42,401 nucleotides of DNA from Gracilaria domingensis (taxonomy: Eukaryota > Rhodophyta > Florideophyceae > Gracilariales > Gracilariaceae): NCBI GenBank assembly GCA_022539475.1, contig VCMS01000502.1, positions 1 to 42,401 of the forward strand, written 5' to 3'. This document shows, in pieces, positions 9,541 through 32,818 of this stretch. The first letter of the stretch is position 1. Each line of letters begins with the position of its first letter. The position numbers and the translations under genes are program-made. Below the pieces are notes generated by a model that had not been told where the DNA came from, did no database searches, and saw only the letters and a list, made by a program, of their open reading frames with translations.

Positions 9541-10628
9541 GTGCCAAGTGGGCCACAGGCTGGGGCCGCTACCGCTGTGTATGCCTGCGCGAATACACAA
9601 GTCATGTGCCACGTGCACGGCGGCGTCGTCGGTGAGAGTCTTTCATACCGCGTCCTGTGCTGCGCGGTCTTCTTCGACGAGTTGGGCGGCGCGCGATGCA
9701 GTCGGATGGCGCCGACGGCGTGTTTCTCGCCGGATTGTCGCTTGACAGCGACGGGTTCTGGCCATACAACCGTCAGATTGTAGAGTGCGGAGGCGCAGTT
9801 GCCGAAGCTTTCCTTGGTCGGTCATCGCGATTGAGTGCTGGCGTTGGGATTTTCTACAGAGGGGAGTCGATTGGATTCTGCTTCGAAGGACGGTCGAGTG
9901 TGGATCTGGGACTTTGAGAAAGGAACTGGTGAGAGCTTGGCTTCCCATCGCAAATGGGTGACGGATCTGTGTTTGAAGCCGTATCATTTGGATGAACGAT
10001 GTTGTTTGGTGGTGTCTGCTTCGAAGGATGCTACGCTGAAGATTTGGAACGTGGCTAGCATGAGCGCGGTCAGGATGCTCGCGCGACATAGAGCTGCCGT
10101 CACGACTGCCGTGTGAAGTGGAGACGGTTTTATCTATTCTGCTTCTCAGGATCGTAGTATAAAGATCTGGAATGCTGATAATGGCTTATCTTTGTCGACT
10201 ATAAATGCACATGCTCACTGGGTGAATTCTATCACGCTTTCTACCGACTACGTGCTCAAGTGCGGTGCGTTTGCATCTCTGGACGAGCAGAACGGATACA
10301 TGCCGGTCAAGTGGTCGCGAGAAGAAGCGTTGGAGCGCTATGAAAAGGTGAAACGGCAAAGTACGGGCGGGAGGGAACTTATGGTGAGTGGGTCCGATAA
10401 TTTCACTTTGATGCTGTGGGAAGACGTTTGGAAACGCACCTAGGGCATACAGTCCATTTCGCGCATGACCGGCCATCAGCAGCTGGTCAAATGCGTGGCG
10501 TTCAGTCCGGATGGGCGGTATATCGCGTCGGCCAGTTTTGACAAGAATGTAAGACTTTGGGATGGCAAGCTGGTAAGTTTTGCTACACGTTCCGCGGACA
10601 TGTTGCGGCCGTTTATCGAGTGGTTTGA
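9541..10628 (+). pseudogene. Notchless-like WD40 protein (NLE/Rsa4), nonsense-riddled pseudogene
   Basis: Notchless is a WD40 ribosome-biogenesis factor of the 60S subunit. One frame runs from 9541 to about 10563 without indels and gives successive WD repeats, including LVVSASKDATLKIWN, AHAHWVNSITLSTDYVL (a Notchless signature) and [18 protein letters not shown]. It is interrupted by TAG at 9781, TGA at 9832, TGA at 10114 and TAG at 10441. The first three stand where the family has Trp. A one-base loss near 10563 shifts the frame; the shifted frame continues as [13 protein letters not shown] and stops at TGA 10626, again at an expected Trp. Homology then ends. The last WD repeat is found at 32720-32799 on the other strand. 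The N-terminal NLE domain was not recognised. Confidence 0.85.
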
Positions 10629-10699
10629 GAAGATATTAATCCTGCGCAGTTTTTTGTTCGTTTAAGAGATGGAGATGAGATAAAATGTGTATGGTGTAC

Positions 10700-11576
10700 T
10701 ATAATGTGCGCCAGGAGGCCTAGATGAGTTGCAAGAGAAGCTTATGGTCCTTAGAAACGTGATAGACGTGGTACAGAAGGCGGTGAAAGTGTTCTGCACA
10801 AGACAAGGGTTGGTGGATGAAAGGATGTTGAAATCGGATGTAGAAGGAAGGACAGAGATGGGAAGTGTGGGAAGGGTTGCGGCACAGAAGGAGTCCTTTT
10901 TGACACCGAAGGCGAAGGCTGGTAGGTTCGGGCACCGGAAGAGCCGTCTGACGAAGAGGCGTAAGGAGAAGAGGATGGTGATGGAAGAGGTGCCACAGGA
11001 GGCAATCGGGGCTCCAGTCTTGACTGGGTTTTAACGTAGGACATGGCACTGCGAACGGCCGAACGAAATCTGGCGGCGCATAAGGAGAGAAGGATGGGGA
11101 GGAATGGGAAGCTGTTTTTGGGCGACGCGGGTGTACGGGATTGGGGAGGGTTGCTACCCGTACTTCTACAGAAAAGCTTTTGGGGAGACGGAGAGGAAGG
11201 ATCCGAACGCAGGATCGGCGAAAAATGAGTAAAGAGTGATTGCGATTTGGATGGGAAGAAACGTTGGGATGATTGAGGTGGGATGAGTTGTGATTTTTAT
11301 CGCAACTCAGAGGAAAATGTAAACGCAAACTAGCACGAGTGCAGTTTTGAGAGACGGTCGCGGAAAAGAGTGAATGGGGTGGTGCGGCGAAGTAGAACCT
11401 CTACAAAAACTAGGGGACCCAAGAATTAAACTGCGCCATATGGAATTTAATATTCCAAAATTTCTTAATTTTTTGAGTGCCAGCCTCTGCCACCCCCTCG
11501 CGCGCCCCAAATAGCCCAAAAACTAGCTTAGTTTCCAAAGCGAACAGACTATATTCCACTTTGCAGAACACAGACG
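10700..11576 (+). pseudogene. Decayed copy of the coiled-coil repeat gene at 29695-30624
   Basis: It aligns over its length with about 30220-31061. The coding part covers the coiled coil and the basic C-terminal region (SRLTKRRKEKRM against SRLKKRRKEMKK; EEVPQEAIGAPVLTGF against EEVPREGVGAPVVTGF), with a stop at 11032 and scattered substitutions. The N-terminal half is missing. The homologous 3' flank includes a small CTAG element and ends with GAACACAGACG at 11576, next to the truncated transposase. Its presence between Notchless and transposon copy B suggests a nested insertion or a recombination joint. Confidence 0.75.
11330..11526. mobile_element. CTAG-bounded MITE-like element, 197 nt
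   Basis: It starts CTAGCACGAGTGC and ends CCCAAAAACTAG. An internal CTAG at 11410-11413 may divide it into two nested units. It is nearly identical to 30816-31012 and shares termini and a GACCCAAG-AATT block with the 158-nt elements at 7383 and 32819. No coding capacity. Confidence 0.5.
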
Positions 11577-12358
11577 ATTGTGTTTCAAGTATGTCCAGTT
11601 CAAAAACATGGACTGCTGTTAGAGAGATGTTCTCAAGTAGGGACACAAGGTCGATTCTTGATCAAATTGGTGAACAGGCCCTTCCTCCTTTCCTCAGTCT
11701 CGTGAAAGAAACACTGGATGAGCACTCTATTACATACTTCCCAGAAAAGACAAGGATAACTCTGGTGAATTCGGCCCTGGTGAAAGGCGGTTTCGTTCCG
11801 ACTCTTGAACACTTCGATTCGTCTTCTAAGGCACTTAAGCTGGGACGACCCAAATACCCCATCATCCAACGAGTCTTCGCTTCTCCAGCATTTGGTCCCA
11901 GTAGAAAGCCAAAGTTTTCCACTGTATTGGTAAGCGGAGAAGATTCAGAGACTTGGGTTGCCCAGGTAGTCGCTCTGATTCGAATATCTCTCCTTGATTC
12001 TGCACTTACCGCACCAGAGGTGGCATTCGTTCGGTATTTCGAGGTTTTACCCCCCGCAACAAACATCGACCACATATTGAAATGCATATCTTTACGGTGG
12101 GCTACAAACGATGAAAAGAACCACACTCTTCCGTTCCCTCGTCATTCCAAAGCGGAGACTATCGTAGAGTTAACTCCTTGGTACGGGATGGTTCCGGCTT
12201 CTGCACTACAGGGAACTGTCCATGTTGTTCGATCAAACTACCCTGCTCCACCTTTTTGTCCTCCACTTCAATGGTTTCCACACCGATTCTACATCAATCG
12301 ATTCTATCATGATTCAGATGAAGGACCAACTGAGCACGTTGATCTTGTACAGCCTTAA
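11577..12358 (+). pseudogene. Plavaka/KDZ-like transposase, C-terminal third only (copy B)
   Basis: Homology to the transposase begins abruptly at 11577 (equivalent to about 37302 in copy C) and continues to the stop at 12356-12358. The DDE catalytic region is absent. The retained part is the C-terminal domain, which ends with the FYINRFYHDSDEG block resembling the FYVNPF-type ending of Plavaka proteins. It is the only copy in which this segment has no frameshift. It is open upstream into non-homologous sequence (from 11477), so a chimeric 293-codon frame exists, probably by chance. Copy B could not supply its own transposase. Confidence 0.8.
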
Positions 12359-14751
12359 ACATTAAGGGCTCCATCCTCTACATGTTCACCTTGTGGTGCC
12401 TTTTCTTGTGATCCTTTGTTACTTCCGAAATCGTTCATGTCCATTTCCTTGAACTCCATATCTCCTTCCTCGCATTCACCAACGAAGCAATCGCTAATAG
12501 ACCCCAATCTTTGGCTCACACTGTCAATAAAAAATTGTTCTTTCACAGTGAGGTAAAGTCTTCCGTTCGACGGCATTCGATATCCAAATGTAGCCTCTCT
12601 CATGTCATTACCAAGAACCTTAGTCCAATCTTCCGTTGTCGTTCCAAAATTATGAAACTCGCTGGAATTGGTCCTCAAGACACGTTGCCTAACATCCCCC
12701 AGAACATTCTTTAAACACAGAGGTAGCAGTTCGGCAAACTTCTTTGTAAACAGTTTCTGTCTCTGGCCACCCCTTGACACATCCGTACTTAGAAGGCTCA
12801 CAACCGTCAACACCCAAGCGTCCAAACGTGCGAGCAACAGTATTGTGCCATCTAAAAAGGTGCCCGTATCCTTGTCTTCCACATCATACCCAATAAACTC
12901 CTTCAGCACTTGTACCCCGACACGGTTTCGGAAGAGCAAGTCTTGATCTTCCGTCGGCATATCCTCGACATTGTCCGCATTGGAGTACTTTAGACGAACA
13001 AATGGGGCTTTTCTCCACCATGAAGTGTTCGGTACACCATTTTCGTCAAGACGCAGTATGTTCTCCTGCGCTTCCTTAAACTGCATTGTGAGTTCGTCAG
13101 CATTCTCTTCTACCAGCTTTGTTCTTCTCCAAATCAGATCGTACCCCAGGAGCAGAAATAGTTTATCCCTCGTATTTCTCTTACGAACGCCCACGACGTC
13201 ACTCATGGTCTGCCGCATTCTCTGCCTAAGGCACATATCTGCACAAAGTTCCAGTATACACCTGTCGGTAAGAGATGCTTTTCTAATACCTTCCCAGCTC
13301 AACTCCTTCAACTCGCTTTCAACCATTTTCTTCAGCAAAGCATCTGGCCCCCCCTCTACCGACGGTGTGAACATGCCAAAACTGCCCAAGAGCTCCACGG
13401 GGTTTTTAGGAACCATGTATGAACCACCTTCCTCCGGCTCAATAAGCCCTTCCCCACTCTCAGTTGCGTCTTCCACCTTCTCGGCACGGTTACCCCAAAT
13501 TCGGGTGAGCGACTCACCTTCGAGCCATAGCTCACTTGTTTCTCTCCTTGCCCACGTCAGCATGTTGTGATACACTGCTCGAGCAACCCCTCGAAACTCG
13601 TTGCACACCTCAATTTTATGCTTCTTTCGACCTGTCTGCCCAGGTTCACCAGCACGTGTACTACTATCTCCCTCCTGTTTCAGTGCCCCTCTTAGCCCTT
13701 CAATGACTAGATCCTTCTCTTCAAGCCCCTTTTTCAAAGCCGTACTCTGCTCTTGGGCGACCTTCACTAGAATTCCCCGAACCATCAAGTCCTCTTGTAG
13801 CGTCTTAACCTTTTCTTTCAAGCAATTCAGTTCATTTAAAAGATCACGTCTCTTCAGAGAGGTTGATTTCACACCAGTGTGGATGTCTTCCGGTATTTCC
13901 TTAGCCTCTTCGGCGACAGGCCCCGGTAATGCCGCAGGATTCGGTGTTATTTCGTTATCGGAACTATCCTCATGTTCCATAGCCTTAGACACGAGAGGCT
14001 GCAGGCGTTCTGTGTCCACCCCTGGCACGGCTCCGAGCTCCAACTCCCGTGTCTGTCCTCCTCCGTGTCATGGTATATCAGATGAATTGGGCCTCGTACG
14101 AGCTGCAACGGCCCCCGTTCTGGAAAGAGGGGAAGGTCGAGGAGTAACTCGTCTATCAGTTGTCTCTCGATTTCTTATTGTCTTTCTCACTTGTCCGGAC
14201 CCATTGCGAGGCATGATACGATTCATAGCGGCCCCAGCTCTAGAAGACAGGGATGGACGTGACGATCTTAATATACTAGGGCTCTCACGACTTCTCGTCA
14301 TTGTTCCTTGTTGTCCAGATCCACTGGGCGGCGTAACCCGCGCCGCAGTAGCTCCGGTCTTCGATATCGGCCGGGGACATGAAGGTTTGGGTGTCATACG
14401 AACCTCTTCGGTTCCAGTTGTCATGCCCTCCTGTCCTGACCCGCTGGGCCGAGTTACCTCATCTTCTTGAGGAGCAGAGACAGATGCACGATTTGCATTA
14501 TCGGCAGTTGACGGCACGACATCGTTCGCTGATCCACGAATTCTTGACGCAATCCCGGAAGACGCTCCGCTGCGAGATGGGCGAGAAAGTCCTGTAGAAG
14601 GACGCCCACTGACTCTCTCCTTCGTCGAGGACGACTTCCGTTTAGAAAGTGCGGTGCTTGTAGCCTGATTCGTATCATCCGATGCTCTTCTCTTCTTCTG
14701 TCCACTCTTGTTCCGCTGCGTACTATTTCGTTTTCTCGGCGTTATACCCAT
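12355..14751 (-). pseudogene. Transposon coiled-coil protein gene, copy B (one nonsense codon)
   Basis: It is collinear and equal in length to the intact gene in copy C (799 codons from the MGITPRKRN start). The only clear lesion is an in-frame TGA at 14068-14070 where copy C has the Cys codon of IPCHGGG. Re-initiation at 14043 could give a 562-residue C-terminal product. The N-terminal third is basic and Ser/Arg-rich with GSGQ repeats, followed by a coiled coil and a helical C-terminal domain. In this copy the frame is also open upstream of MGITP to 14958, across a G-rich tract that differs in length in copy C. The stop overlaps the transposase stop within TTAA. Confidence 0.75.
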
Positions 14752-14997
14752 ATTGTGGAGATAAACAGGGTAATGAAACGAAATTGTTGGGGAGGGGGGA
14801 GGGAGTGGGGGGGGTGCATGGTTCAGATATTCCGGGAGACTCCGTAGTTCCTGCTTTTTAGGAATTTGAGGTGCCCAATGGGGCGCAAATATCGCCGTTA
14901 CAGATGAAGAGCTCGAGTGTACATGTACAACAACGCGTATTGCAGGCAGCTGCAACACTCACAAGCATATTTACTTTCTATTCGGTACTGAACTCAT

Positions 14998-15909
14998 CTA
15001 TTGCTCCAATGTCAGAGCGCAGTCCCAGGCGTACTGCTCTCCGTAGTTGAAATACAACTCTTCGCCCCTCTCAATATCTCTTACTGCTCTACAACGAAGT
15101 AGAGCATAGTTAGAAAGGTCTGACTTAAAATGTATCACGGACTTCGCTTCCACCACCTGCACATTGGCACTTCGAGTCCTGTTTGACCGGGGCTCCGATA
15201 AATCGGGATCCCCGGCATGATATCCGGCGTCGTTAATGTAGCCCCCGATACAAAAAGGCGCCGGGACAATGTAGACTTTGCTCTCCTTTCTATCCTGAGC
15301 CTGTCCTGGTCTGTTCCTCAGGTGCAGAAACTCCGTACCAGTCACAGTGACCATCATAGAAAACAACTTGTACCGCACTAGAGTTGCTCCGAGACAGCCA
15401 CTTCCATACGTTAAGTGTCTTTCCTTCCGGTTCGTCAGATCCGTGTATACCAAAGTTCCATAGAAATGACAGATAGTTTCCCCAGCCAATATCTTATGTT
15501 CCGTGAACACCCCCATACCAGCACGGGGATGTCGAATCTTAGAAGATGCTATATGTAAGCGATAGCGATTGGCTTCAACAGTCAACAGCATATGCATATC
15601 CATTAGATTCAGAGCTCCTCGGTACTTCCCCTCCCAAAGATCTACAGTACGCTGTCCACACTTCTCGACAAAGTCCTAGTCCTTCCAGTATCTTCCTAGG
15701 AACTGAGTAATATGTCCAGGCATCACTTGGTACTGGGGGTAACCAAATGGAGCCTCCCATTCAAGCCGACCTCGGTCCCGATGTGGAACCCGTTCATAGG
15801 TCGTTGAAGCCGCATCCACCACCTCCTGTTCAACCAGGATGTCATTCTTCCCCCCCGAATAACTTCGGCCATAAGAGTCGTTAGATGGTGCTTCGCATGG
15901 CTGAAACAT
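14998..15909 (-). pseudogene. Transposon SET-domain protein, copy B (nonsense codon)
   Basis: It has the same length (304 codons) as the intact copy at 40719-41630. A TAG at 15676-15678 replaces the TGG of copy C (WKDWDF), which cuts the frame at residue 77, upstream of the SET domain. Downstream the domain is complete, with GMGVFTEHKILAGETI, GGYINDAG and GEELYFNYGEQYAWD. Asn replaces the Asp of copy C in the last motif. A start within the frame at 15603 would yield a 201-residue protein with the whole SET domain. The first 187 nt overlap the methyltransferase gene in another frame. Confidence 0.8.
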
Positions 15910-16886
15910 GGCCTATTCTTCTCGCACCCCAAGAACTTCCTATGCTTTGTCAGCGATAGCCACGCCATACCCGTAGAAAAAGTTCCCGCGAACATGTCCA
16001 TGACAAGATCACTCGGTCTTGTGAAGCGACATATCAACTCCTTCATCAACTCCCTCGACTTCTGCTCCGGTCTTATGTACTGCCCACCTAGTACTGAACT
16101 ACCTGGCTCATGTACCTTCCATGTCAACCACTCCCCCGCTCTCGGTTTTGGCACCCGGTCAATTACATTCCTGTTAGCCGGGAAAGTAGAAGGAATGAAA
16201 TTGTTCTCCTCAAATGGAGTAAGACCGGCTTCCTCCGATGGTCGCAATCCACGCTTCACCCCATGAACGGCGTACTCCGTTACGGGCTGTATCCCAAACT
16301 TCCGTGGATTCCCTCCAACATTACTGCGATCCCGGATGAACACCAGTTGATTCGCATCCGCTTTAAACGAAGGCATGAGTTCTGGTTTACCTTCGCTTCC
16401 AGCTTCATCTTTCGTACTCGCCGTTTCCGAAAGCATCCTGTGCCAAACATGAAACTGTGCCATGGCACAGAATATAATGAAGTGCCCACCTGACCGAAGC
16501 GCGGAACTTATTAAGTCAGCCGTACGGATCATGTCTTCCTCACTGAAGACATCGTGACCACTATTCCGTTTGTTCCTCTTCCTTCGAGTGTTAAAGGGAG
16601 GGTCTGTTAGGACAAGCTGTGCCTCACCCCATAAAATCTCACTCTGATTCACAAACGTTTCGTGTGTGTGCCTCAGGTCCGTCATGTCACAGTTGTACGC
16701 TACAAAGTGTGACTTTCTCATCCCCTTCCACACCTTGTCCATATTCATTCGAAGGAGACTGGATATCCCCTTCATGGGCGGCTCAATACCAGTCTTTTGG
16801 ATGTTGTAACCGGCAACCCGAGATTCATGCTCCCCAAGATTCACCGGCTTCTCGAACTCGTCGCTATCGGAGCTCACGAGGTTCAT
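15723..16886 (-). CDS. Transposon-borne DNA N6-adenine/N4-cytosine methyltransferase (copy B, complete)
   Basis: 387 residues. The catalytic motif IV DPPF is at residues 95-98 and the AdoMet-binding motif I, DMFAGT, at about 297-302. A Lys/His-Glu segment stands just before it, as in amino-methyltransferases with motif IV before motif I (beta-type order). Such enzymes transfer methyl from AdoMet to the exocyclic amine of adenine or cytosine. The ATG at 16886 overlaps the stop of ORF1 as ATGA, and the 3' end overlaps the SET frame by 187 nt. The last ~60 residues after GCEKNRPCF look unlike a protein core, while the alternative frame there continues into the SET protein. It may act on the transposon's own DNA or on host chromatin; target unknown. 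Confidence 0.85.
   Translation of the reverse strand: MNLVSSDSDEFEKPVNLGEHESRVAGYNIQKTGIEPPMKGISSLLRMNMDKVWKGMRKSHFVAYNCDMTDLRHTHETFVNQSEILWGEAQLVLTDPPFNTRRKRNKRNSGHDVFSEEDMIRTADLISSALRSGGHFIIFCAMAQFHVWHRMLSETASTKDEAGSEGKPELMPSFKADANQLVFIRDRSNVGGNPRKFGIQPVTEYAVHGVKRGLRPSEEAGLTPFEENNFIPSTFPANRNVIDRVPKPRAGEWLTWKVHEPGSSVLGGQYIRPEQKSRELMKELICRFTRPSDLVMDMFAGTFSTGMAWLSLTKHRKFLGCEKNRPCFSHAKHHLTTLMAEVIRGGRMTSWLNRRWWMRLQRPMNGFHIGTEVGLNGRLHLVTPSTK
15850..15856 (-). promoter_or_regulatory. Possible -1 frameshift site (G7 run) between methyltransferase and SET frames, copy B
   Basis: On the minus strand the methyltransferase frame reads CGG GGG GGA AGA here. A one-base backward slip would continue as GGG AAG AAT GAC, which is the SET frame. 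The run of seven G and both frames are the same in copy C (41571-41577). G-GGG-GGA fits the X-XXY-YYZ heptamer form. Frameshifting is inferred; an intron or an old indel are alternatives. Confidence 0.35.
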
Positions 16887-18133
16887 ATACTCCGACGAGG
16901 TGGGGGTGGGGCAGACTTGGTCGAAGAAGGTTCGGCATTACCGGAAGTTTTAGGGGTTTTCGTCAGTTCAATATCAGGTTTCGCGTGAATGCCGACATGA
17001 AACCCTGCCGCATGACGCATATCCTGTATCGGTTTCCATAGCAACTCCGAAAACTTCTGAAATCGAGCAGGCAACTCACCGGAGTCAGAACCAGATACGG
17101 TATCCATCCGTATCTCCGAAAACTCTATCCAGTTCCTCATCTGATCAGCCCGTAAGCTATAGAGGCTATCGTGGGTGCATATGGTTTCGAGGTCTGTCAA
17201 AAACTCCTTAGCCAGTATTCGCAGGTTTGTATCGCATTCATCACTCAAGGTCTCCACCGATCCACTAGTACTGCTCTGTGGCACATCCTTTGTGTTGAAT
17301 CGAGTACTCTGGCTCGGCGGGGCATAACCAGACTCCCGTGTCTCTAGCGCCGTATACTTCAACGTCTGCATATTCATGTAAATGTATGGTTTCACCATAT
17401 GCTGAAAGTTCGTGTATCCAAGATGAGCCGCTAAACAACTCCATGCCCATACGACCTCACTGATAGCGAATCCCAGTCGATCACAGTTGTCTTTGGAGAA
17501 CGACGTAAAAGTGGGTATGTACACAGATGGTGCATGGTTCACTTTTCGTTTCTTTTTCGGTTGTTTCTTCTTCATCATTCGGATGTTGTCGTTCTCTCCC
17601 ATTATGTGGCCGAGGTATGATAAGTATATAACGACCTCAAATGGGTTCACAGCTGTTGGTGGGATGAACACTGTCGTCTTCAGAACCTGCTTTCTCCTGG
17701 TCATGAAATAACCAACCAGGCATCGCACCGGTAGGTATATACCCATATCCATAGAGAGAAGGAAAAAATCGCGCAGTCTCTGGTCCTCATCCCCGTCCTT
17801 CTTGTCAAGAAGCTTCGTTACAAGATATCGCTGTTCCACAGGTTTGTTATTCACAACACTCTTTCGCAGCTGTTGCAGTGTCAAGTTCTGCAGGTTCTTG
17901 GAGTTAGTGGCCTCCTCAAACATCTTCCTTGCCTCCGGAATATCCTTATAGTTCTCGGCGCAGAACTCTATTAACCCTCTAAACCCCACGTCCCGTGGCC
18001 GATCAGGGCCTCCATCGCTGTTTGCCAAAGCATCGCGAAGAACCAAGAAAAGTCTGACATATGCATGGAACGCCGGAGGCGGAGCACTCATGTCGATAGG
18101 ATGTATCTCCTCTCCAACATCGGTGGAATCCAT
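16883..18133 (-). CDS. Transposon ORF1: 416-residue nuclear protein of unknown family
   Basis: I do not recognise the fold. A lysine-rich block at residues 188-198 contains PKKKRKV, identical to the classical monopartite nuclear localisation signal, so nuclear action is likely. The N-terminal 170 residues look helical with several hydrophobic stretches (YVRLFLVLRDAL, RDFFLLSMDMGIYLPVRCLVG). The middle carries Trp-rich helices (EVVWAWSCLAAHLG). The C-terminus is Pro/Ser-rich and ends SAPPPPRRSI. The gene starts about 30 nt downstream of a TTTAAA box in the divergent promoter, and its stop overlaps the methyltransferase ATG. It is the first gene of a minus-strand series of four (ORF1, methyltransferase, SET, coiled coil), which suggests one transcript. 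It may be a DNA-binding or complex subunit. Confidence 0.75.
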   Translation of the reverse strand: MDSTDVGEEIHPIDMSAPPPAFHAYVRLFLVLRDALANSDGGPDRPRDVGFRGLIEFCAENYKDIPEARKMFEEATNSKNLQNLTLQQLRKSVVNNKPVEQRYLVTKLLDKKDGDEDQRLRDFFLLSMDMGIYLPVRCLVGYFMTRRKQVLKTTVFIPPTAVNPFEVVIYLSYLGHIMGENDNIRMMKKKQPKKKRKVNHAPSVYIPTFTSFSKDNCDRLGFAISEVVWAWSCLAAHLGYTNFQHMVKPYIYMNMQTLKYTALETRESGYAPPSQSTRFNTKDVPQSSTSGSVETLSDECDTNLRILAKEFLTDLETICTHDSLYSLRADQMRNWIEFSEIRMDTVSGSDSGELPARFQKFSELLWKPIQDMRHAAGFHVGIHAKPDIELTKTPKTSGNAEPSSTKSAPPPPRRSI

Positions 18134-18155
18134 CGCTTCAGCGCAAACAACGGAG

Positions 18156-18226
18156 GCGAGCCTTTAAATGGCGACTAACGCTGGGCACCCACGCTTTCGG
18201 CAGCTCCTCCCAGCGCACTGCCAGTC
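18156..18226. repeat. Left 71-nt arm of inverted repeat flanking the divergent promoter
   Basis: It is the reverse complement of 19248-19318 with three mismatches. Each arm contains TTTAAA (18163-18168 here) placed as a TATA-like box for the gene outside it; here that is ORF1, starting at 18133. It could equally be the terminal repeat of a nested 1.16-kb element, but no clear target duplication is visible. Confidence 0.8.
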
Positions 18227-19247
18227 ACACGACCGGACCCCCCCGCCCGCGGGCATAAAATCGCACATTTTTCAAAAAATCGCCCAAACCGTGCCCGCGG
18301 GCGTAAAGGGGGGGGGGGTCGGTCGTGTTAGGGTGGCTACCCTAACACGAACGACCCCCATCCCGCCCGCGGGCACGTTTTCGACGAATTTTTGACACCC
18401 TCCGGAGACCTCCCAAAACACTCCTCCCGGCACTTCCTGTACCCACTGCGTCACCTCAGTGCACCATCCTGGAAATTAGGGAGTGTCTGGAGGGTGGAGA
18501 AGACGAGATGGTCACCTCAGTGCACCATCCCAGAAATTAGGGAGTGTCTGGAGGGTGAAGATGACGGGATGGTGCACTAAGGTGACGCAGTGGGTACAAG
18601 AAGTGCCGGGAGGAGTGTTTTGGGAGGTCTCCGGAGGGTGCCAGAATGTGGCCAGAACGTGCCCGCGGGCGGGGGGCTCGGTCGTGTTAGGGTAGCTACC
18701 CTAACACGACCGACCCCCCCTCCGCGCCCGCGGGCACGTTTTGGGCGATTTTTTGAAAAATGTGCGATTTTATGCCCGCGGGCGGGGGGTCCGGTCCTGT
18801 TAGGGTAGCTACCCTAACCCGGCCGACCCCCCCCCCCCCCGCCCGCGGGCACGTTTTGGACGAATTTTTGAAAAATGTGCGATTTTATGCCCGCTGGCGG
18901 GGGGGTCCGGTCGTGTTAGGGTAGCTACCCTAACACGACCGACCGCCCCCACCCGCGGGCACGTTCTGGCCACATTCCTGTGCCTTCCCGGGACCTCGCA
19001 AAACACGCCGCCGCGCAGTGATTTCGCGACACCCGGCCGCCGGTACGTTGGCGCCGCTGTCCACGTGTATTTGCGGGAGTAGGCTGTACATGGAAGTGAA
19101 TGAGTGTACTCTTGACTACTATGCAAAGCATTTGAAGAGCATGATTAGAGAACGCGACCATTGCTCGCGTGAGTCATCATTGCGCGAACTCCACGACTCT
19201 AAAGCGTACAATCAGTGTGCGAGCGGCCACGGACAGGACACGGACGA
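18227..19247. promoter_or_regulatory. Palindrome-rich divergent promoter region of transposon copy B
   Basis: No gene is present. The region separates minus-strand ORF1 from the plus-strand ParB/oxygenase gene. It contains many GCCCGCGGGC palindromes, poly-G/poly-C tracts, four TTAGGG/CCCTAA palindromes and an inner inverted repeat (about 18394-18456 against 18581-18640) around two ~61-nt direct repeats (18458-18579). An AT-rich block gcgattttttgaaaaatgtg recurs between the GC-rich palindromes. The architecture suggests a bidirectional control region, possibly bound by an element protein. Confidence 0.6.
18323..18941. repeat. Four palindromes with head-to-head TTAGGG/CCCTAA cores
   Basis: The copies are 18323-18350 (12-nt arms, 4-nt loop), 18678-18713 (36-nt perfect palindrome), 18799-18818 (20-nt perfect core with weaker flanks) and 18908-18941 (34-nt perfect palindrome). 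The shared core is GTTAGGGTAG/CTACCCTAAC. They are spaced about 110-350 nt apart and flanked by GCCCGCGGGC. Confidence 0.85.
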
Positions 19248-19318
19248 GACTGGCAGTGCGCTGGGAGGAGCTGCCGAAAGCGGGGGTGCCCAGCGTAAGT
19301 CGCTATTTAAAGGCTCGC
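19248..19318. repeat. Right 71-nt arm of inverted repeat flanking the divergent promoter
   Basis: Partner of 18156-18226. It contains TATTTAAA (19304-19311), 77 nt upstream of the ATG at 19388 of the plus-strand gene. Confidence 0.8.
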
Positions 19319-19387
19319 ATCCGTTCTTGTATCGTCCAGAGCGAGCGTATTGTTGATATACACCTTTCACTGCAATAGCTGTTCAAC

Positions 19388-20777
19388 ATGAAGCCAACTC
19401 GTGTTCGAAAGCGTACGCAAAGCGTGACTCCTCGCACTCGGCGAAGCACTCGATTATTGCAAGGTAGAATGCGGGTTTCTCTGCAGATGGATATTGAGGA
19501 TGAAGGAAAGGTGATAGTCGGGGAAGCGTTGTTGCATGGAATTGGAAGTGTTCTACGCCGCGAGTTGCACGGGAAGCAATTGGACCCAGGTCTTGTGGTG
19601 GTTCATAATATTCTCATCAGTCGAAGCGGTCAGACGTTCTATCCATACCGGGCGGAGGGCCTGGATCTTCCACAATATATCCAGGATCTCCGGACGGCCG
19701 CTCCTTGGGATGAGAAAATGATGGAACCGGTGGCAGCCAGCATTCCGGCGTCGAAGCGAGGAACGGTGAGCGCTATGAGTGAGGTGATGACGCCGACAAG
19801 CCGCACGGAGCCAATTCGAAGTTCATCAACACCGAGAGGTAGCGCATCAGTACCACCTCCGCGGGCAGGTCCGTCGTCTGTTACGAAGCGGTCTATGGAG
19901 ACGAGAGCATCCCCAGCTACGAAGCGGACAGGTCAAACAAAGTCTACCTCCGCTACGAAGCCCACTGCGTCGAAAAGGGCTTCTCCTGCGATGAATCAGA
20001 CCGTCGACACAAGGGGATCTTCTGCGTCAAAACAGACGGTTCAGCAGGGACGGCTGTGCAAGAGGAGGAAGATGAGATCATGAAAGGTCCCCTTCCAGAC
20101 GCGGATGCGCAATCCGCGCAAGGAGCTGGTCCATCTGTACCCCAAACTGCACCAGAAACTGCGGAGCAGCAGGACGATGACGTTGTGCTTCTGTCCGCAA
20201 TAATGGCACGTTCAAGTGTTTCTGGCGAGCGGTCTGGAACACAAGGGACACCTACTCAGAGCAAGACGTACAGACGAATTCGTCCGAAGGTACCAAAGGT
20301 GAACCTCAATCAGTACCGGATGGTTGTTGTTACTGTTGACATCACTCTGGTGGACACTCCGCCCAATTTACTCCGTGGAGTAAGTAAACGCCACGTTGAA
20401 GCCCTTGTGAAGAGTATGGAGGAGCGGGGATATTGCAGTCGATGGGTTCTCCAGTGGTGGTCTTACAAGATGCTACTACGGGAGAGAGGGATACTGACAA
20501 GGGACGCCTAACGAAGAAGTGCTTTATTGTAGATGGTTTGCATCGTCTGAAAGCTATACAATATTTGGCAGCGACTGGTGCACCGAAGTGGAAGCGATTA
20601 GCCAAGTTTTGGCGTTGCAATCTGCTGGTACGAAGAGATGGGAGGCCCATTGGTATGAAGGAATTGTTATGTGTTGCTTCGTACCTCAATGAGTCGACGA
20701 GTACCATGCGAAGGATGATGTTTGCAGACAAGATACACTCTATACTTAGTGTGGTCGCCATTCTAATTGAAGATGTT
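19388..20777 (+). CDS. N-terminal half of transposon ParB-like/oxygenase protein (frameshifted as read)
   Basis: The ATG at 19388 follows a TATA-like box. The first ~220 codons are basic and rich in Ser/Thr/Lys/Arg, with a repeat of ATKRT/SATK-type units. Next comes a Gln/Asp-rich linker. A domain like the ParB/sulfiredoxin-type nuclease fold follows: SKRHVEALVKSMEERGY, then SPVVVL, then the signature FIVDGLHRLKAIQYL (around 20522-20566). These domains bind nucleotides or DNA and occur in partition proteins and DNA-modification systems. Two frame changes (near 20050 and near 20430) join the pieces smoothly if one base is gained or lost, so sequencing error is plausible. The reading continues with a helical region whose true continuation is at 22190. 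Confidence 0.65.
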
Positions 20778-22188
20778 GAGGGGGTGACGCCGGCAGACGT
20801 GGATCCTGCAGAAGTGACAGAAGTGTTGAAGGAGAGCCAACTGATTGGGACTGTGCAAGAGCGTCAGTATCTGAGATATGCCAATGTCGCCATGCAACTC
20901 ATGTCTCGTGAGGGAATGCTGGCCCATTTCGAGGATATATGTGAGACTGTGAGTGACATAGGTCTCACACATCTGTCCCATACTCCGCTATATGTTTTGG
21001 ATGCCGAGGCGTTTTCCTTCATTCTTGATTGTCTTCAGATGTTTCTATTGAAGGGCAAGTCGACGAAGACAAAGCAATGGAAAAGCTTTGAGGAGGTTCG
21101 AGGTTTCTTTTATGATAGAGCAGTGTCTCTGTTCCCGCGGCTAGAGCAGTGAGGAATGAACTGAACGAGGAAGAGTCCATGGAAGTGTTCCTGAAACGCG
21201 AAGTCAGTCTTTCTGCTCCATCGAATGAAGATGACGTTGAAGACCCAGACAACAACGCAGCTGTGTATCAGTTCTTTTGGGACAAGTTGTGAACTTCAAC
21301 ACATTGCCGCGTGTTCGGAGCAGGACGAACTCAATTAGAACTGCCACGACTTCCGTTCAGAATCGATTGCGGACGATGCTCAAGGTAATTCCGCCCCCGC
21401 ACCAGTGAAGCAGTCCGTGACGAAGAGGAGGACTCCCGCTGCTGCTGCTGCAACATCTGCCAGTGAAGAAGGGGAGCCGCGAAGAAGTGCACGAGAACGG
21501 GCGCAGGTGAGTTATAGGGAAATCGAGCACGGCCGAAATCGAGTGCCATAGAAGTTCTGGATAGCTCTGAAGAAGAACAGCGGGCTCCGCCGAGGAAGAA
21601 ACGGAGAAAGACTTTCACACAACAGATGAGATCTACTCTGAACAGCATGACACCGGATGACCTGATGTCTCAACTAAATGAACATGTGCTGAGAGGAAGG
21701 TCGATGAAGGTCAGTTCGTGGCATTGGAGAGGGAGCGAATGCAGAGAACGCAGGCAGTTCTGCATTTGTGATGACGATGAGCTTCTTTCTGTGACAGTTC
21801 CACGGGTTGTCACCGTCGAGAAAGATGCTGCGCTAGACGATCAGCAAGAGACAGGTGGGGGTCATTTGATGACGAGTTACCTACAGCTCTTCCGGAATCT
21901 GAGGAGCACGGACTTGTTCGAGGTGACCCATATGATGGCCCACCGAACCCATCATGGTGCGGGTATGCCAGGCTGAGACCGCAGAATGGCAAGGAAGAAC
22001 GTAATTGAGCACAAGGACCCCTGGCTCAGATCATTCACTTGCCGAAGGACATAGTCGGAAAGCTTCTAAGTGTCTCGAATCTCGAATGTACACCATTCTT
22101 GTCTTTTGGCATGCTGCAAGGGCTGAAACATCGCCTACGGCGGAGACCAATTGGTATTGCAGTATCCTCGTACTCTACCGACAGGTAT
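20778..22188 (+). repeat. Duplicate of 22190-23609, probably an unmerged low-quality contig end
   Basis: The two stretches match nearly base for base over 1.4 kb. Indels in the first are few up to about 21700 and then frequent (a dozen or more in the last 500 nt, mostly homopolymer lengths) up to the N at 22189. That gradient is typical of read ends. The reading frame is kept only by combining the two. Treat as one locus. Confidence 0.85.
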
Positions 22189-22189
22189 N
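22189..22189. other. Single ambiguous base (N) marking a contig join
   Basis: This is the only N seen in the window. Left of it the sequence matches 23609, and right of it the sequence restarts at the equivalent of 20778. It is a join between two overlapping contigs. Confidence 0.85.
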
Positions 22190-24714
22190 GAGGGGGGTGA
22201 CGCCGGCAGACGTGGATCCTGCAGAAGTGACAGAAGTGTTGAAGGAGAGCCAACTGATTGGGACTGTGCAAGAGCGTCAGTATCTGAGATATGCCAATGT
22301 CGCCCTGCAACTCATGTCTCGTGAGGGAATGCTGGCTCATTTCGAGGATATATGTGAGACTGTGAGTGACATAGGTCTCACACATCTGTCCCATACTCCG
22401 CTATATGTTTTGGATGCCGAGGAGTTTTCTTTCATTCTTGATTGTCTTCAGATGTTTCTATTGAAGGGCAAGTCGACGAAGACAAAGCAATGGAAAAGCT
22501 TTGAGGAGGTTCGAGGTTTCTTTTATGATAGAGCAGTGTCTCTGTTCCGCACGGCTAGAGCAGTGAGGAATGAACTGAACGAGGAAGAGTCCATGGAAGT
22601 GTTCCTGAAACGCGAAGTCAGTCTTTCTGCTCCATCGAATGAAGATGACGTTGAAGACCCAGACAACAACGCAGCTGTGTATCAGTTCCTTTTGGGACAA
22701 GTTGTGAACTTCAACACATTGCCGCGTGTTCGGAGCAGGACGAGCTCAATTAGAACTGCCACGACTTCCGTTCAGAATCGATTGCGGACGATGCTCAAGG
22801 TAATTCCGCCCCCCGCACCAGTGAAGCAGTCCGTGACGAAGAGGAGGACTCCGCTGCTGCTGCTGCAACATCTGCCAGTGAAGAAGGGGAGCCGCGAAGA
22901 AGTGCACGAGAACGGGCGCAGGTGAGTTATAGGGAAATGAGCACGGCCGAAATCGAGGTGCCATAGAAGTTCTGGATAGCTCTGAAGAAGAACAGCGGGC
23001 TCCGCCGAGGAAGAAACGGAGAAAGACTTTCACACAACAGATGAGATCTACTCTGAACAGCATGACACCGGATGACCTGATGTCTCAACTAAATGAACAT
23101 GTGCTGAGAGGAAGGTCGATGAAGGTTCAGTTCGTGGCATTGGGAGAGGGAGCGAATGCAGAGAACGCAGGCAGTTCTGCATTTGTGGATGACGATGAGC
23201 TTCTTTCTGTGACAGTTCCACGGGTTGTCACCGTCGAGAAAGATGCTGCGCCAGACGATCAGCAAGAGACAGGTGGGGGGTCATTTGATGACGAGTTACC
23301 TACAGCTCTTCCGGAATCTGAGGAGCACGGACTTGTTCGAGGTGACCCATATGATGGCCCACCGAACCCATCATGGTGCGGGTATGCCAGGCTGAGACCG
23401 CAGGAATGGCAAGGGAAGAACGTAATTGAGCACAAGGACCCCTGGCTCAGAGTCATTCACTTGCCGAAGGGACATAGGTCGGAGCTGCTAAGTGTCTCGA
23501 ATCTCAGAGATGTACACCATCTTGTCTTTTGGCACGCTGCAAGGGCTGAACATCGCCTACGGGCGGAGACATTTGGTATGCAGTATCCTCGTACTCGACC
23601 GACAGGTATGGATGATGAAGAGGTGCTGTGGGTTGCTGCGAAGGAGCATGACGAATTTGGGCAAATGTTCTTCGCCCGAATGCAAGCTGAGCTAAGGCAG
23701 AATGGATATTGCGTGCTTGATGGCTTTGCGACGGATAATGGTGTCCCTAAATGGGAGGAGTTGGAAGAAGTTCGGGAGTTCGGAGATGTGTCGGGGAAGT
23801 TGGTGGACTTCTTCGAGAATGAGTATGGAGCGATGCCGGATATACGGAAAGGAGAGGAACAGAAGTCGTTTGTTCAAATAATCAACGATGATGAAGGATG
23901 GAAGGACGGTAGCGATGGACCATTTGAGGGGAGAGTGATGTCGACACGTTGGGGTACGGTGGAGAAGCCGGAGGATAATGAGGAGCTCAGGTGGGTTGTA
24001 AGGTCGCGTGCTTTACTTGATGTTCGAATGGGTACAATTGCTGCGGCTTTGGGACTATGGGACAATGAAAGGGAAGCTGTGAAGATGTACACTCCGAAAA
24101 CTGGTGGTCGATTTCTGGGGACGACGAGAAAGTGCAAGCGCCAGACGCTGCACACCGACTTCAGTGGTCTGGTTACGAAGGAAACAATGAATACTGGCAA
24201 CCCCGGATACTTTGTAATGGCCTCTGGGAAAGAGGGCTTTCCTCTCTGGGTGAGCGCTGGAAGCCATCAACTGGTGGGGATGAACAACCAACAGTTGCGA
24301 GTGATGTCGGAGGTGTATCCAGCGAAGAAGATAATCATCCCACCGTACTCTGTATTCGTGGGCCGTGGTGATGTGACACATGCTGGAGCAAGTGGGAAGG
24401 ACAAGGTGGATAGGCCCGAGTCTATGGATTTGCTGGTTAGATACCACATGTACATGGTACCAGAGGGCTACGCACTACCTGATGCTGTTCATCGGGTGCG
24501 GGATTTCCGACCCACGTTTGTCAATGGTGACGAGGAGGAGGAGGCGGAGGATGAACTGTTGTCCGATAAGGAGGGTGGGGCGGTTGACATGGACGAAGAC
24601 CAAGTGGTCGTGGAGATTGGTGTGGAAGCGGACGCCGGTAGAACCGAAGTGCTCGAGAGTAGTAGTGATGACGATTTGCCAATAATGAGGCTGCGAGCGC
24701 CTCGAAGTGGATGA
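22190..24714 (+). CDS. C-terminal half: 2-oxoglutarate/Fe(II)-dependent oxygenase-like domain
   Basis: This continues the ParB-like protein. A helical domain (22190-22760) leads to a Lys/Arg/Ala-rich linker. The first overlap copy repairs the frame there (near 22852, 22938 and 22962), giving one frame to 24714. From 23041 the frame is fully open (557 residues). Late in it, QTLHTDF supplies His371 and Asp373, GDVTHAGA supplies His447, and Arg458 or Arg467 follows. That is the HxD...H...R arrangement of 2OG-Fe(II) dioxygenases such as the PhyH, AlkB and TET/JBP groups. These hydroxylate proteins, nucleic-acid bases or small molecules. The last 80 residues are Asp/Glu-rich. Subfamily cannot be fixed by eye; a base-hydroxylating role is inferred from neighbours. 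With the duplicate removed, the whole gene would encode about 1300 residues. Confidence 0.65.
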
Positions 24715-24976
24715 GAATGAGATGATTAGTAAATTATGTGTGTCTTGCGAGTATTAAGAGTAGTATACTATTACAAGGCTATACATATGAACATAGAAAA
24801 GGTGCGGCAGGCTGGTAATTGAACAAATGTCAAACTCTTTGGTCCAGTTGCGTCTAATTGCAACATGCCAAATGCTCGGTATCGTTAACATCATTGGTGG
24901 CACCAGTCAATTCGCAATTGAACATGTAGCGTCCTAACATTTCTGAAACTGCACTTAAGGTTGCTTTTAAGAAAGT

Positions 24977-25888
24977 ATGAAACTGAGAAGTCTATGCAGT
25001 TCCTGTCTATGCGGTACTTGTGGCAGTATGGTGACTGTATCAGGAAAAATGGCAGAGGAACAGAGAGACTTGGCGGAAATTTCACCAAATACCTTGTCTA
25101 AGTTCATATATGCCAATGGTTACGGTATATTAAGTTCCGTTGATGGAACGTTGAGAAGAGAAGGAGAGTCAATTCCAGAAGAACTTGTGAAGTGTATGAA
25201 GTTCATTGACGAACGTGTTGGTTTCGGACTTGTCACAGGGGGTGATGTGGGCGACGTGGAGGGGAAAATGGAAGGACTCGGAGACTATAAGTTTGGTGTC
25301 TCGGCGAATCATGGAGCTTTCCTGCGTTTCTCCGACGAGAGGGAAATTAAGGGTGCATTCAATGATCACACCCTTGACCACACTGTTGACGGACTACTGT
25401 TCCTGGCAAGGGATTTGAATAGGAGGCATGGTATTGTGAATGATGATGACAAGGGGTTCGTGGAGACCAGAAGTGATAGTGGCCTTCCCAATTTCGTGTA
25501 CAACAAACTGTGGCAGTGGAAGGAAGAAGTGGATTCTGCTATTGGGGACCTGTTGCAGAAGATGGATGCGTTTGTTATCTATCCCGGCGATAAAAGTTGC
25601 GAAATTGTGGACAAGCGATACACAAAAGGAAGCGGAGGAGAAAATCTTGTGGATAATGAACCGAGATTTATTGATACGGATGACGTCGTGACGTTCGGAA
25701 GTGCTTTGAGCGACGGGCCTTTGCATGAGGTAGGCGTGTACGGCGTTCACGTCAAAGAAGATTGCACCCCGGGTGGAGTACACAACCTGTTCCAAAGCGT
25801 GGAGGATGTACATTCGACAATTATGTTGGTGGCTCTGTTGTACGGCTACGAGGAAAAGCAGCACGATAAAAACCACCATGATTCATAA
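24977..25888 (+). CDS. HAD-superfamily phosphatase-like protein lacking the nucleophile
   Basis: 303 residues, clearly paralogous to the product of 25941-26891. HAD phosphatases of the IIB (Cof/mannosylphosphoglycerate/trehalose-phosphatase-like) group use the first Asp of DxDGT as nucleophile. Here that motif reads SVDGT (residues 54-58; TCC codon), so the nucleophile is lost. TGRD of motif II is TGGD, and the motif IV block GNASND is GSALSD. The frame is nevertheless intact and the rest is conserved (DSGLPNFVYN, VHVKED). It is therefore likely a pseudoenzyme or regulatory paralog rather than decayed DNA. The N-terminus is Cys-rich. The two genes end 52 nt apart, tail to tail. Confidence 0.8.
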   Translation: MKLRSLCSSCLCGTCGSMVTVSGKMAEEQRDLAEISPNTLSKFIYANGYGILSSVDGTLRREGESIPEELVKCMKFIDERVGFGLVTGGDVGDVEGKMEGLGDYKFGVSANHGAFLRFSDEREIKGAFNDHTLDHTVDGLLFLARDLNRRHGIVNDDDKGFVETRSDSGLPNFVYNKLWQWKEEVDSAIGDLLQKMDAFVIYPGDKSCEIVDKRYTKGSGGENLVDNEPRFIDTDDVVTFGSALSDGPLHEVGVYGVHVKEDCTPGGVHNLFQSVEDVHSTIMLVALLYGYEEKQHDKNHHDS

Positions 25889-25940: not shown

Positions 25941-26891
25941 CTAAGTATTAAAGGCATCGTAGCACTTGAAACAAATTCCAAGAGCATTTCTAAACCATTG
26001 ACACTTGCATTTTCTGTACCCGTACAGTTCTGCCACCCTTCTGATGGTCTCATGCACGTCCTCCACCCCATCAACAAGATATGTTACCGCTGGTGGAGGG
26101 TCGTCTCCCTTCACATGAACTGCGAGGGTTGCCATTTCATATAGAAGACCATCATTGGAAGCATTCCCGAAAGCAACGATTAAATGTGTGTGGAACTGGG
26201 GGTCGTTTTCAACCAAGGCTAGCGCCCCACTATTTTTCGTGAAACGAATGTCCCCTATGTCACAGTTTTCATCTTGAGGGTACGCAACCAGGTTCGGAAA
26301 GGATGTCAACACTTTTGAAATACCGGAGTTAGCTTCTGTTTTCCACTTCGACAGTCCATTGTACGTGAAGTTAGGGAGTCCACTGTCTTTTCTAGTGCTC
26401 ACCACTGCTTGTTGACGCTCTTCGTGAAGTCCGTGCGATTCATTTAAGGAGAGTGCAAGTCTTTCAAGTTCGGCTGCACATCTTTCGTAGCCTTCCCTGT
26501 CAAGGTCCTGATCAATTTCGGTACCATTGGATAATCTCACCCGTGCGCCTTGGTTTCCAGAGATGCCAAAAGTGTAGCCACCCAGGTGCTCCATGAAACT
26601 CTCGGCATCCTCTATATCTCGCCCAGTAGCAATTCCGAAACCAACGCGTGCATTGATGTACTTCATGCATTTGATTGTTTCGGCAGGAATGTTCTCCCCA
26701 GCTCTTTTCAGAGTACCGTCAACATCACTAATCACGGCGTAGCCATTTTCGAATATTTCGTTAGCCAGCTGCTGAGGAGTTACTTCTTGGGCTCTAACTT
26801 CTGAGTTATACATGTTTTGAAAGCTTTCGAAAGGGTTCGTTTTGCAAATGGGTGTGGGTATACAAATGAGAAGGATGTGATTGATGGTCAC
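25941..26891 (-). CDS. HAD-superfamily (type IIB) sugar-phosphatase-like protein
   Basis: 316 residues. Motif I DVDGT is at 56-60 with the nucleophile Asp56 and acid/base Asp58, motif II is ATGRD around 88-92, and motif IV is FGNASND near 246-252. A C2-type cap with DSGLPNFTYN lies between. The family hydrolyses sugar or polyol phosphates; mannosyl-phosphoglycerate or trehalose-phosphate phosphatases are the nearest kinds I can name, substrate unproven. The first 20 residues are hydrophobic and may be a targeting signal; a start at Met27 is also possible. The C-terminus has four Cys in 20 residues. A TATAAAAAG-like box lies upstream near 26905 on the complementary strand. Confidence 0.8.
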   Translation of the reverse strand: MTINHILLICIPTPICKTNPFESFQNMYNSEVRAQEVTPQQLANEIFENGYAVISDVDGTLKRAGENIPAETIKCMKYINARVGFGIATGRDIEDAESFMEHLGGYTFGISGNQGARVRLSNGTEIDQDLDREGYERCAAELERLALSLNESHGLHEERQQAVVSTRKDSGLPNFTYNGLSKWKTEANSGISKVLTSFPNLVAYPQDENCDIGDIRFTKNSGALALVENDPQFHTHLIVAFGNASNDGLLYEMATLAVHVKGDDPPPAVTYLVDGVEDVHETIRRVAELYGYRKCKCQWFRNALGICFKCYDAFNT

Positions 26892-32799: not shown

Positions 32800-32818
32800 C
32801 GTCTGTCTCTTGCAGATG

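What the first reader, a model, noticed from the sequence alone, without database searches (positions are those of the whole stretch)
11577..24714. A large DNA transposon carrying its own DNA and chromatin modification genes
Plavaka/KDZ-like transposase and coiled-coil genes are physically linked, in copies with the same order, to a SET-domain protein and an amino-methyltransferase with DPPF and DMFAGT motifs (copies B and C). In copy B these continue to a nuclear ORF1 and to a gene with ParB-like and 2OG-Fe(II)-oxygenase-like domains. A writer of base methylation, a histone-type methyltransferase and a possible hydroxylase on one element suggest that it sets its own epigenetic state. Fungal KDZ elements are known to associate with TET/JBP genes; this fuller combination is not one I know.
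Basis: partly seen in the sequence, partly recalled or inferred. Interest (0 to 1): 0.92.

Follow-up and report, generated by a model that had tools for sequence, protein, structure and literature searches.

The report
Giant transposon encoding fused DNA-histone methyltransferase
A jumping gene of about 22.6 kb, with hundreds of full or shortened copies in an unidentified eukaryote, carries one protein that joins a DNA methyltransferase to a histone-type methyltransferase, and both halves show signs of being preserved by selection.

Summary
The genome has 465 exact left and 491 exact right termini. Copies with both termini on one contig reach 22.3-22.9 kb.

Main correction and novelty: the SET domain and the N6_N4 methyltransferase are one fused protein (819-aa frame read in one copy; 1,055-aa open frames listed in 8 of 150 places). 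A second Plavaka family carries the fusion at 39% identity, opposite the transposase at nearly the same spacing (one member sequenced). Distinct changes among copies indicate purifying selection (pN/pS 0.44, P=1.4e-4).

ParB likeness is weak (E=0.0045). The 2OG-oxygenase assignment has no HMM support. 20,780-23,612 holds an assembly duplication.

Many 10-15 kb derivatives seem to lack the writers, so these are probably not needed in cis.

Most likely mechanism, inferred: a trans-acting dual writer that marks element chromatin so that the transposon escapes host silencing.

Giant algal transposons with ParB-methyltransferase accessory proteins are already published, so this is a new variant of a known kind. 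The host is unproven; a Gracilaria-like red alga is a guess.

The parts
32800..32822 (+). Left terminus of the element (copy C), CGTCTGTCTCTTGCAGATG...; half of a TIR
   Evidence: Same end after different flanks; 465 exact 23-mer copies in the genome
31040..31062 (+). Right terminus (copy B), ...TTTGCAGAACACAGACG; its reverse complement resembles the left end
   Evidence: 491 exact 23-mer copies
7537..7559 (-). Left terminus of copy A (element runs leftwards off the window)
34775..38075 (+). Plavaka transposase, copy C (two frames, 34775-37423 and 37440-38075; one 1,100-aa frame in L019, L020, L022, L024)
2239..5535 (-). Plavaka transposase, copy A
11577..12358 (+). 3' part of the Plavaka gene, copy B
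38072..40543 (-). Coiled-coil-like protein, 823-835 aa, no Pfam match (copy C)
12355..14958 (-). Coiled-coil-like protein, copy B (two frames, one stop)
1..2238 (+). Coiled-coil-like protein, copy A (cut by the window end)
14998..18163 (-). MTase-SET fusion gene, copy B: N-terminal region 16883-18163, N6_N4 MTase 15906-16619, SET within 14998-15675; broken by frame changes here, one 819-aa frame in L021
40719..42401 (-). MTase-SET fusion gene, copy C (MTase 41627-42340, SET within 40719-41633; cut by the contig end)
18146..19328 (.). Mirror-symmetric intergenic region between two divergent genes: 81-bp inverted repeat (18146-18226 / 19248-19328, 94%) around four palindromic units, two of them perfect over 34 and 36 nt
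   Evidence: 24-nt core 360 times genome-wide
19388..21152 (+). 5' part of the ParB-like gene; broken here, one 526-aa open stretch in L055
20780..23612 (.). Assembly duplication: 20780-22191 = 22193-23612 (97.5%) joined at N22189
22933..24714 (+). C-terminal part of the same long protein; HTD...H motif by eye, no HMM match
24971..25888 (+). HAD-type hydrolase 1 (PF08282, 23.6 bits, cut-off 20.9)
25941..27011 (-). HAD-type hydrolase 2 (PF08282, 46.6 bits), 356 aa
27441..28688 (-). ORF of unknown family; no selection seen
28810..29058 (+). Fragment of ribulose-phosphate 3-epimerase (profile 128-198 of 198)
   Evidence: PF00834, E=8.8e-22
29596..30624 (+). Charged, coiled-coil-like ORF near the right end, no Pfam match
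10625..11576 (+). Right end of a related element (76% identical to 30140-31062) abutting copy B

Best explanation
This is a giant Plavaka (EnSpm/CACTA-like) DNA transposon of about 22.6 kb. It carries a selected accessory gene whose product joins a bacterial-type amino-methyltransferase to a SET domain. Shown: the element, its termini, its gene order, the fusion, the same fusion in one member of a second Plavaka-linked family, and signs of purifying selection. Inferred: the protein acts in trans on copies of the family. It methylates bases (most likely N6-adenine, from the DPPF/DPPY motif) and a histone lysine on the same chromatin. It thereby sets a permissive mark that lets the transposase be expressed, or lets full and deleted copies move, despite host silencing. 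The divergent ParB-like protein is inferred to bind the palindrome array between the two genes and to recruit the writer or regulate the shared promoter.
For: Termini and copy number. Copies of 22.3-22.9 kb with genes at fixed offsets; all five genes in order on C57. One fused frame: 1,055-aa open frames at 8 of 150 MTase places (listed, not read), L021 819 aa with MTase 280-517 and SET 647-806, C12 one 553-aa frame. Linkage: 36 of 123 listed Plavaka places have a listed MTase within 12 kb, and in 29 of these it is opposite at 5.4-6.5 kb; 26 of 54 coiled-coil places have an MTase within 12 kb, all on the same strand at 2.3-2.7 kb. Divergent type: 12 of 32 MTases have Plavaka opposite at 6.2-6.5 kb; the one read is 39% identical over 579 aa across MTase, linker and SET, with codon-position identity 0.56/0.62/0.35. 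Selection, distinct changes: pN/pS 0.44 for the fusion (P=1.4e-4), 0.42 MTase (P=0.012), 0.49 linker plus SET (P=0.021), 0.62 transposase. Nearest solved MTases are adenine-specific (DpnA, E=2.8e-11; CcrM, 4.8e-7). Shared mirror-symmetric intergenic region with palindromes. The palindromes lie inside several 10-11 kb derivatives (places within pairs on C2, C8, C9, C19, C26, C27).
Against: No enzymatic or methylation data. The SET domain has IND where NHS/C is usual (by eye), and its hits to solved SET domains are weak (KMT2A, E=0.0042). In the listed places 87 of 123 Plavaka, 28 of 54 coiled-coil and 51 of 74 ParB/'oxygenase' places have no listed MTase within 12 kb; contig breaks and capped lists account for an unknown part. 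30 of 46 paired ends are 10.1-11.3 or 12.3-14.9 kb long and none of these 30 has a listed MTase. 18 of 32 MTases of the divergent type have no listed Plavaka within 20 kb. ParB similarity is weak. The C-terminal part of the ParB-like protein shows no constraint in a small sample (pN/pS 1.16, 10 changes). Anti-silencing or self-silencing is not decided by sequence.
Confidence: 0.5

Rival explanations
1. The fusion regulates transposition itself: methylation of element DNA (termini or palindrome array) sets which copies the transposase can bind or cut, as hemimethylation does for some bacterial and plant elements (recalled).
For: Palindrome array present in full copies and in deletion derivatives; writer linked to the transposase in two families.
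Against: Does not explain a SET domain; methyltransferase targets unknown.
Confidence: 0.2
2. The writers silence the element (self-limitation) or rival transposons, keeping the host alive while copies persist.
For: Bdelloid N4CMT, a bacterial amino-MTase fused to a chromatin domain, marks transposons together with silent histone marks (passages of PMC8885841).
Against: Selection on an element-borne gene for self-silencing is harder to maintain (inference); the family has hundreds of ends.
Confidence: 0.15
3. Passenger cargo: the transposon captured MTase-SET and other genes by chance, and their conservation reflects young age.
For: It carries likely passengers: an epimerase fragment and an ORF without constraint (27441-28688, pN/pS 1.20). 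The window copies are about 98% identical.
Against: The fusion, at 39% identity, is found at nearly the same place in a divergent Plavaka-linked family and shows purifying selection.
Confidence: 0.1
4. Composite artefact: assembly joins of unrelated repeats create the gene order.
For: Many contigs end inside the element; C50 has 1,026 Ns; the window has a joined duplicate at N22189.
Against: Same order and spacing on many contigs, several with both termini.
Confidence: 0.03

Closest known systems
Giant algal transposons with a ParB + N4/N6 methyltransferase accessory protein (Sola1-1_Ec32 of Ectocarpus, 21.5 kb; PMC12477816, passages seen)
   Same: Giant DNA transposon, accessory amino-methyltransferase on the strand opposite the transposase, ParB-like domain, suspected to modify its own DNA
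   Different: There ParB and MTase are one 1,104-aa protein and the transposase is Sola-1; here the MTase is fused to SET, the ParB-like stretch is in a separate divergent gene, and the transposase is Plavaka
Giant EnSpm elements with several accessory genes in red algae (Petroll et al. 2025, cited in PMC12477816; not held, not read)
   Same: Plavaka is related to EnSpm (PMC12730594); large size and accessory genes
   Different: Cannot be judged without the paper; it may describe close relatives, even this architecture
Plavaka transposons of fungi (PMC12730594; abstract, three sections and passages seen)
   Same: Plavaka transposase; an epigenetic accessory gene (TET/JBP in PlavakaB)
   Different: Termini TGT..ACA or CATCA..TGATG there, CGTCTGT..ACAGACG here; a methyl writer instead of a dioxygenase
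SET-encoding HarbingerS and MuDR transposons of Phytophthora (statement in PMC12730594)
   Same: DNA transposon with a SET gene
   Different: Other transposase superfamilies; no MTase fusion mentioned there
Bdelloid N4CMT (PMC8885841, passages seen)
   Same: Bacterial N6_N4 MTase fused to a eukaryotic chromatin domain
   Different: Host gene, chromodomain instead of SET, SPPY instead of DPPF/DPPY
Amoebidium Plavaka giant repeats (PMC11244446, passages seen)
   Different: Many of their genes encode tyrosine recombinases; the phrase 'SET domain' is not in the text

Membership tests
Plavaka DNA transposon | Plavaka transposase domain | tested here: met
   PF18759 over its cut-off in the window and in copies; 123 scored places in the genome
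Plavaka DNA transposon | Terminal inverted repeats and defined ends | tested here: met
   CGTCTGTSTYYTGCA at both ends; the C17 left end differs by one base
Plavaka DNA transposon | Published termini TGT..ACA (PlavakaA) or CATCA..TGATG (PlavakaB) | tested here: not met
   Ends are CGTCTGT..ACAGACG; TGT/ACA lies 4 bp inside (PMC12730594)
Plavaka DNA transposon | 2-3 bp target site duplication | tested here: inconclusive
   Outside CGTC/GACG, 2 of 7 copies show a matching dinucleotide (C16, C17); C5, C23, C29, C34, C50 do not. The outer CG could itself be the duplication; no clean empty site was found
KDZ transposon with TET/JBP | TET/JBP dioxygenase and KDZ-associated domains in the genome | tested here: inconclusive
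   No match to PF12851 or PF18803 (its KDZ link is recalled), but no control genome rang in either search
ParB-methyltransferase transposon accessory protein | ParB and N4/N6 MTase in one protein | tested here: not met
   MTase is fused to SET; the ParB-like stretch is in another gene
N6_N4 amino-methyltransferase | PF01555 domain with a [DNS]PP[FYW] motif and an FxGT-type motif | tested here: met
   DPPF and DMFAGT in the window family, DPPY and DLYSGT in the divergent family
SET-domain lysine methyltransferase | PF00856 with GxG and the C-terminal YG motif | tested here: met
   GMGVF and (N/D)YG present, NHS/C replaced by IND (by eye)
2OG-Fe(II) oxygenase | Recognisable double-stranded beta-helix domain | tested here: inconclusive
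   HTD...H...R only by eye; no relevant match in Pfam, PHROGs, NCBIfam, PDB sequences or phages; structure model unusable (pLDDT 30)

The most novel reading that the evidence does not exclude
A transposon-encoded bifunctional chromatin writer, DNA amino-methyltransferase plus histone lysine methyltransferase in one polypeptide, is nucleated on the element by a ParB-like protein bound to a parS-like palindrome array. It forms a portable, self-propagating chromatin domain that full and deleted copies share in trans.
Probability: 0.15. Interest if true: 0.92.

Novelty: new variant of a known kind. Interest (0 to 1): 0.63.

Why it matters
Eukaryotes usually link DNA and histone methylation through separate proteins that read each other's marks (established knowledge; see also PMC8885841, passages). 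A single protein holding both writers, kept by selection on a mobile element and present in two diverged families, would make the coupling of the two layers directly testable. It would also show transposons using bacterial-type amino-methylation as a chromatin tool. With hundreds of element ends in one genome, the presence and meaning of 6mA or 4mC can be tested on natural copies with and without the writer.

Tried and rejected
KDZ reading: set aside in favour of Plavaka. Fungal host: not established. Assembly size (77.9 Mb), GC near 0.49 (by eye) and intron-poor frames resemble Gracilaria domingensis (78 Mb in PMC10388701; four sister species 46.6-49.9% GC), but nothing here proves it. Ketopantoate-reductase reading of 27441-28688, my own by eye: no support. 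Viral origin: no confirmed relatives in viral contigs for the ParB/'oxygenase' ORF, the MTase-SET alignment or the transposase (pattern-based, close relatives only). Phages by tblastn: the MTase matches 8 records at 29-44% identity, the 22933-24714 ORF none; SET was not searched there. Plasmids: none for MTase or SET. Tandem duplication of the ParB gene: read as assembly artefact. Structure of the putative oxygenase: single-sequence model unusable, so no fold search was made. Rfam: no family at gathering threshold. Target site duplication: left open.

Literature: word searches asked for methyltransferase, SET or adenine-methyltransferase words with transposon words (titles and starts of abstracts seen); none listed a paper on an MTase-SET fusion in a transposon, and 81 and 83 listed nothing at all. 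Searches asked for Plavaka, 79 and 94 for red algae, 86 for N4-methylcytosine. Petroll 2025, Iyer 2014 and Iyer 2011 are not held, so earlier description cannot be excluded. Papers seen: PMC12730594 (abstract, sections 4, 21, 26, passages); passages of PMC12477816, PMC11244446, PMC8885841, PMC10388701, PMC12502185, PMC13182070, PMC12636532, PMC11065753; outline and abstract of PMC5890265 and PMC6431247.
Full report
What is there. The window is a whole 42,401-bp contig (C502) of a 77.9-Mb assembly in 680 contigs. Self-comparison shows three copies of one repeat: A (minus strand, left end at 7559, running off the window at 1), B (11577 onwards) and C (32800 to the window end), 97.8-98.6% identical over 3.0-6.0 kb. 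Copy B begins at 11577, where the right end of a related element (10625-11576, 76% identical to 30140-31062) abuts it.

Ends. The left ends start CGTCTGTCTCTTGCAGATG (C17 differs by one base) and the right ends finish CTTTGCAGAACACAGACG, an imperfect terminal inverted repeat. The genome holds 465 exact left and 491 exact right 23-mers, and 0 matches of the patterns read backwards. Of the first 100 listed places of each I used the 91 left ends on contigs up to C64 and all 100 right ends; 46 of the 91 have a same-strand right end within 30 kb. Lengths: 10.1-11.3 kb (14), 12.3-14.9 kb (16), 18.9-24.4 kb (11), others 5. Contig breaks bias this against long copies. Five pairs are 22.3-22.9 kb long; four carry listed genes, at Plavaka +2.8 (C23), coiled coil +5.4 (C23), MTase +8.6 to +8.9 (C34, C23, C5), ParB/'oxygenase' ORF +14.5 to +14.6 (C34, C29), HAD +17.5 to +17.7 kb (C34, C23, C5); the fifth (C54) has none listed. 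The gene lists are capped, so absence from a list is weak evidence. C57 carries all five in order. The window's own pieces (4.5 kb from C plus 19.5 kb from B, less the 1.4-kb assembly duplicate) add up to about 22.6 kb. Target site duplications stay open: 2 of 7 copies match.

Genes. The transposase is Plavaka, 1,100 aa in L019, L020, L022 and L024. The coiled-coil-like gene is 823-835 aa with no Pfam match. In C296 (L021) one 819-aa frame holds both domains, and one search lists 1,055-aa open frames around the MTase at 8 of 150 places. The divergent neighbour is a long gene with 1,308-aa frames, free of stops at 2 of 74 listed places (C81, C296). Its N-terminal part is basic and weakly ParB-like (PHROG 3264, E=0.0045, 38 residues; none in Pfam, NCBIfam or PDB sequences). 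Its C-terminal part (22933-24714) has an HTD...H pattern by eye but no match. Then follow two HAD hydrolases, an unknown ORF, a fragment of ribulose-phosphate epimerase and a charged ORF.

Assembly duplicate. 20780-22191 repeats as 22193-23612 at 97.5%, with the window's only N at 22189. The first copy has frame changes that the second mostly lacks, so I read it as two overlapping assembly pieces.

Linkage, with misses. Within 12 kb, 36 of 123 listed Plavaka places have a listed MTase (29 opposite at 5.4-6.5 kb, 2 opposite at 7.7 and 8.7 kb, 5 in other arrangements); 26 of 54 coiled-coil places have one (all same strand, 2.3-2.7 kb); 23 of 74 ParB/'oxygenase' places have one (22 opposite at 5.3-8.1 kb); 33 of 74 of these have HAD opposite (31 at 2.64-2.66 kb). 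The rest have none listed.

Divergent family. MTase places whose profile match starts at position 1 (32 of 150, chosen by me) include 12 with Plavaka opposite at 6.2-6.5 kb; 18 of the 32 have no listed Plavaka within 20 kb. In the window family the distance is about 6.1 kb. I read one of them (C12:73700-75500): a single open frame of 553 aa with DPPY, MTase, linker and SET, 39% identical to the window family over 579 aa. Third codon positions agree in 35% of 537 codons against 56% and 62% for first and second.

Selection. Counting each distinct change once, pN/pS is 0.44 for the fusion (38.5 synonymous, 59.5 non-synonymous; P=1.4e-4 under equal rates), 0.47 for its N-terminal part (P=0.095), 0.42 MTase (P=0.012), 0.49 linker plus SET (P=0.021), 0.62 Plavaka, 0.67 coiled coil, 0.37 HAD1, 0.80 HAD2, 1.16 for the 23818-24711 stretch (10 changes only) and 1.20 for 27441-28688. 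Pooled pairwise values are 0.36, 0.45, 0.61 and 0.71 for fusion, Plavaka, coiled coil and HAD2; those pairs are not independent, and copy B alone scores 0.90 for the fusion. Each gene was compared in 3 to 12 loci already fetched, not in the copies of the whole genome.

Regulatory region. Between the two divergent genes lies an 81-bp inverted repeat (94%) around four palindromic units; two are perfect over 34 and 36 nt, one over 20 nt, one is imperfect. The 24-nt core occurs 360 times in the genome with 0 control matches. One unit (18660-18732) folds far better than shuffles (z -8.4), as any long palindrome would. Arms and palindromes recur in C53 and C296. Several 10-11 kb copies contain palindromes about 5 kb from their left end (C2, C8, C9, C19, C26, C27) against about 11.5 kb in the full element, which leaves no room for the coiled-coil and MTase-SET genes. 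Only one derivative of this kind was read (C53, L049); it has lost sequence on both sides of the array. This suggests a cis role, though one amplified derivative lineage would also explain it.

Mechanism. I commit to a trans-acting dual writer that makes element chromatin permissive (0.5 for the statement as a whole; the anatomy itself about 0.9). DPPF/DPPY and the nearest solved enzymes (DpnA, CcrM, MboIIA) point to N6-adenine rather than N4-cytosine; N4CMT uses SPPY (PMC8885841, passages). In Chlamydomonas 6mA marks active start sites (title in a reference list). The weak closeness of SET to KMT2A fits a permissive mark but is slight evidence. Against it: in the paired sample 30 of 46 copies are 10.1-14.9 kb long and none of the 30 has a listed MTase.

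Known work. PMC12730594 describes TET/JBP in Plavaka and states that SET genes occur in HarbingerS and MuDR elements. [quoted passage not shown] PMC11244446 (passages) describes Plavaka giant repeats in Amoebidium. I therefore call this a new variant of a known kind: MTase fused to SET, in a Plavaka element, in two families, with signs of selection.

Noticed in passing
window 7789-8583: HECT ubiquitin-ligase domain (PF00632, E=1.5e-53) 230 bp from the left end of copy A; copy A may lie in or beside a host HECT gene.
   Followed up: partly
window 9835-10440: WD40-repeat coding stretches broken by stops, next to the right end of the related element.
   Followed up: partly
window 28810-29058: Ribulose-phosphate 3-epimerase fragment inside the element, within a stretch 97% identical in the C17 copy: a captured gene piece carried along.
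   Followed up: partly
window 18301-18961: Palindrome centres read TTAGGG..CCCTAA, telomere-like by eye; not tested.
   Followed up: no
G000 C16, C17 (595-602 kb), C250, C296 (91-99 kb): Plavaka and HAD only 6.1-6.3 kb apart instead of about 15 kb, with no coiled coil, MTase or ParB/'oxygenase' ORF listed between (4 of 15 pairs): an amplified internal-deletion form.
   Followed up: partly
L049 (C53): A rearranged derivative: Plavaka, palindromes, ParB-gene N-terminus joined in frame to part of HAD1.
   Followed up: partly
window 24971-27011: Two HAD hydrolases tail to tail; HAD1 shows constraint (pN/pS 0.37, P=0.013), HAD2 not clearly (0.80, P=0.31).
   Followed up: partly
G000 C22:687-706 kb: A Plavaka-MTase pair of the divergent type lies directly before an MTase and ParB/'oxygenase' ORF of the window type: possibly nested or joined elements.
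   Followed up: no
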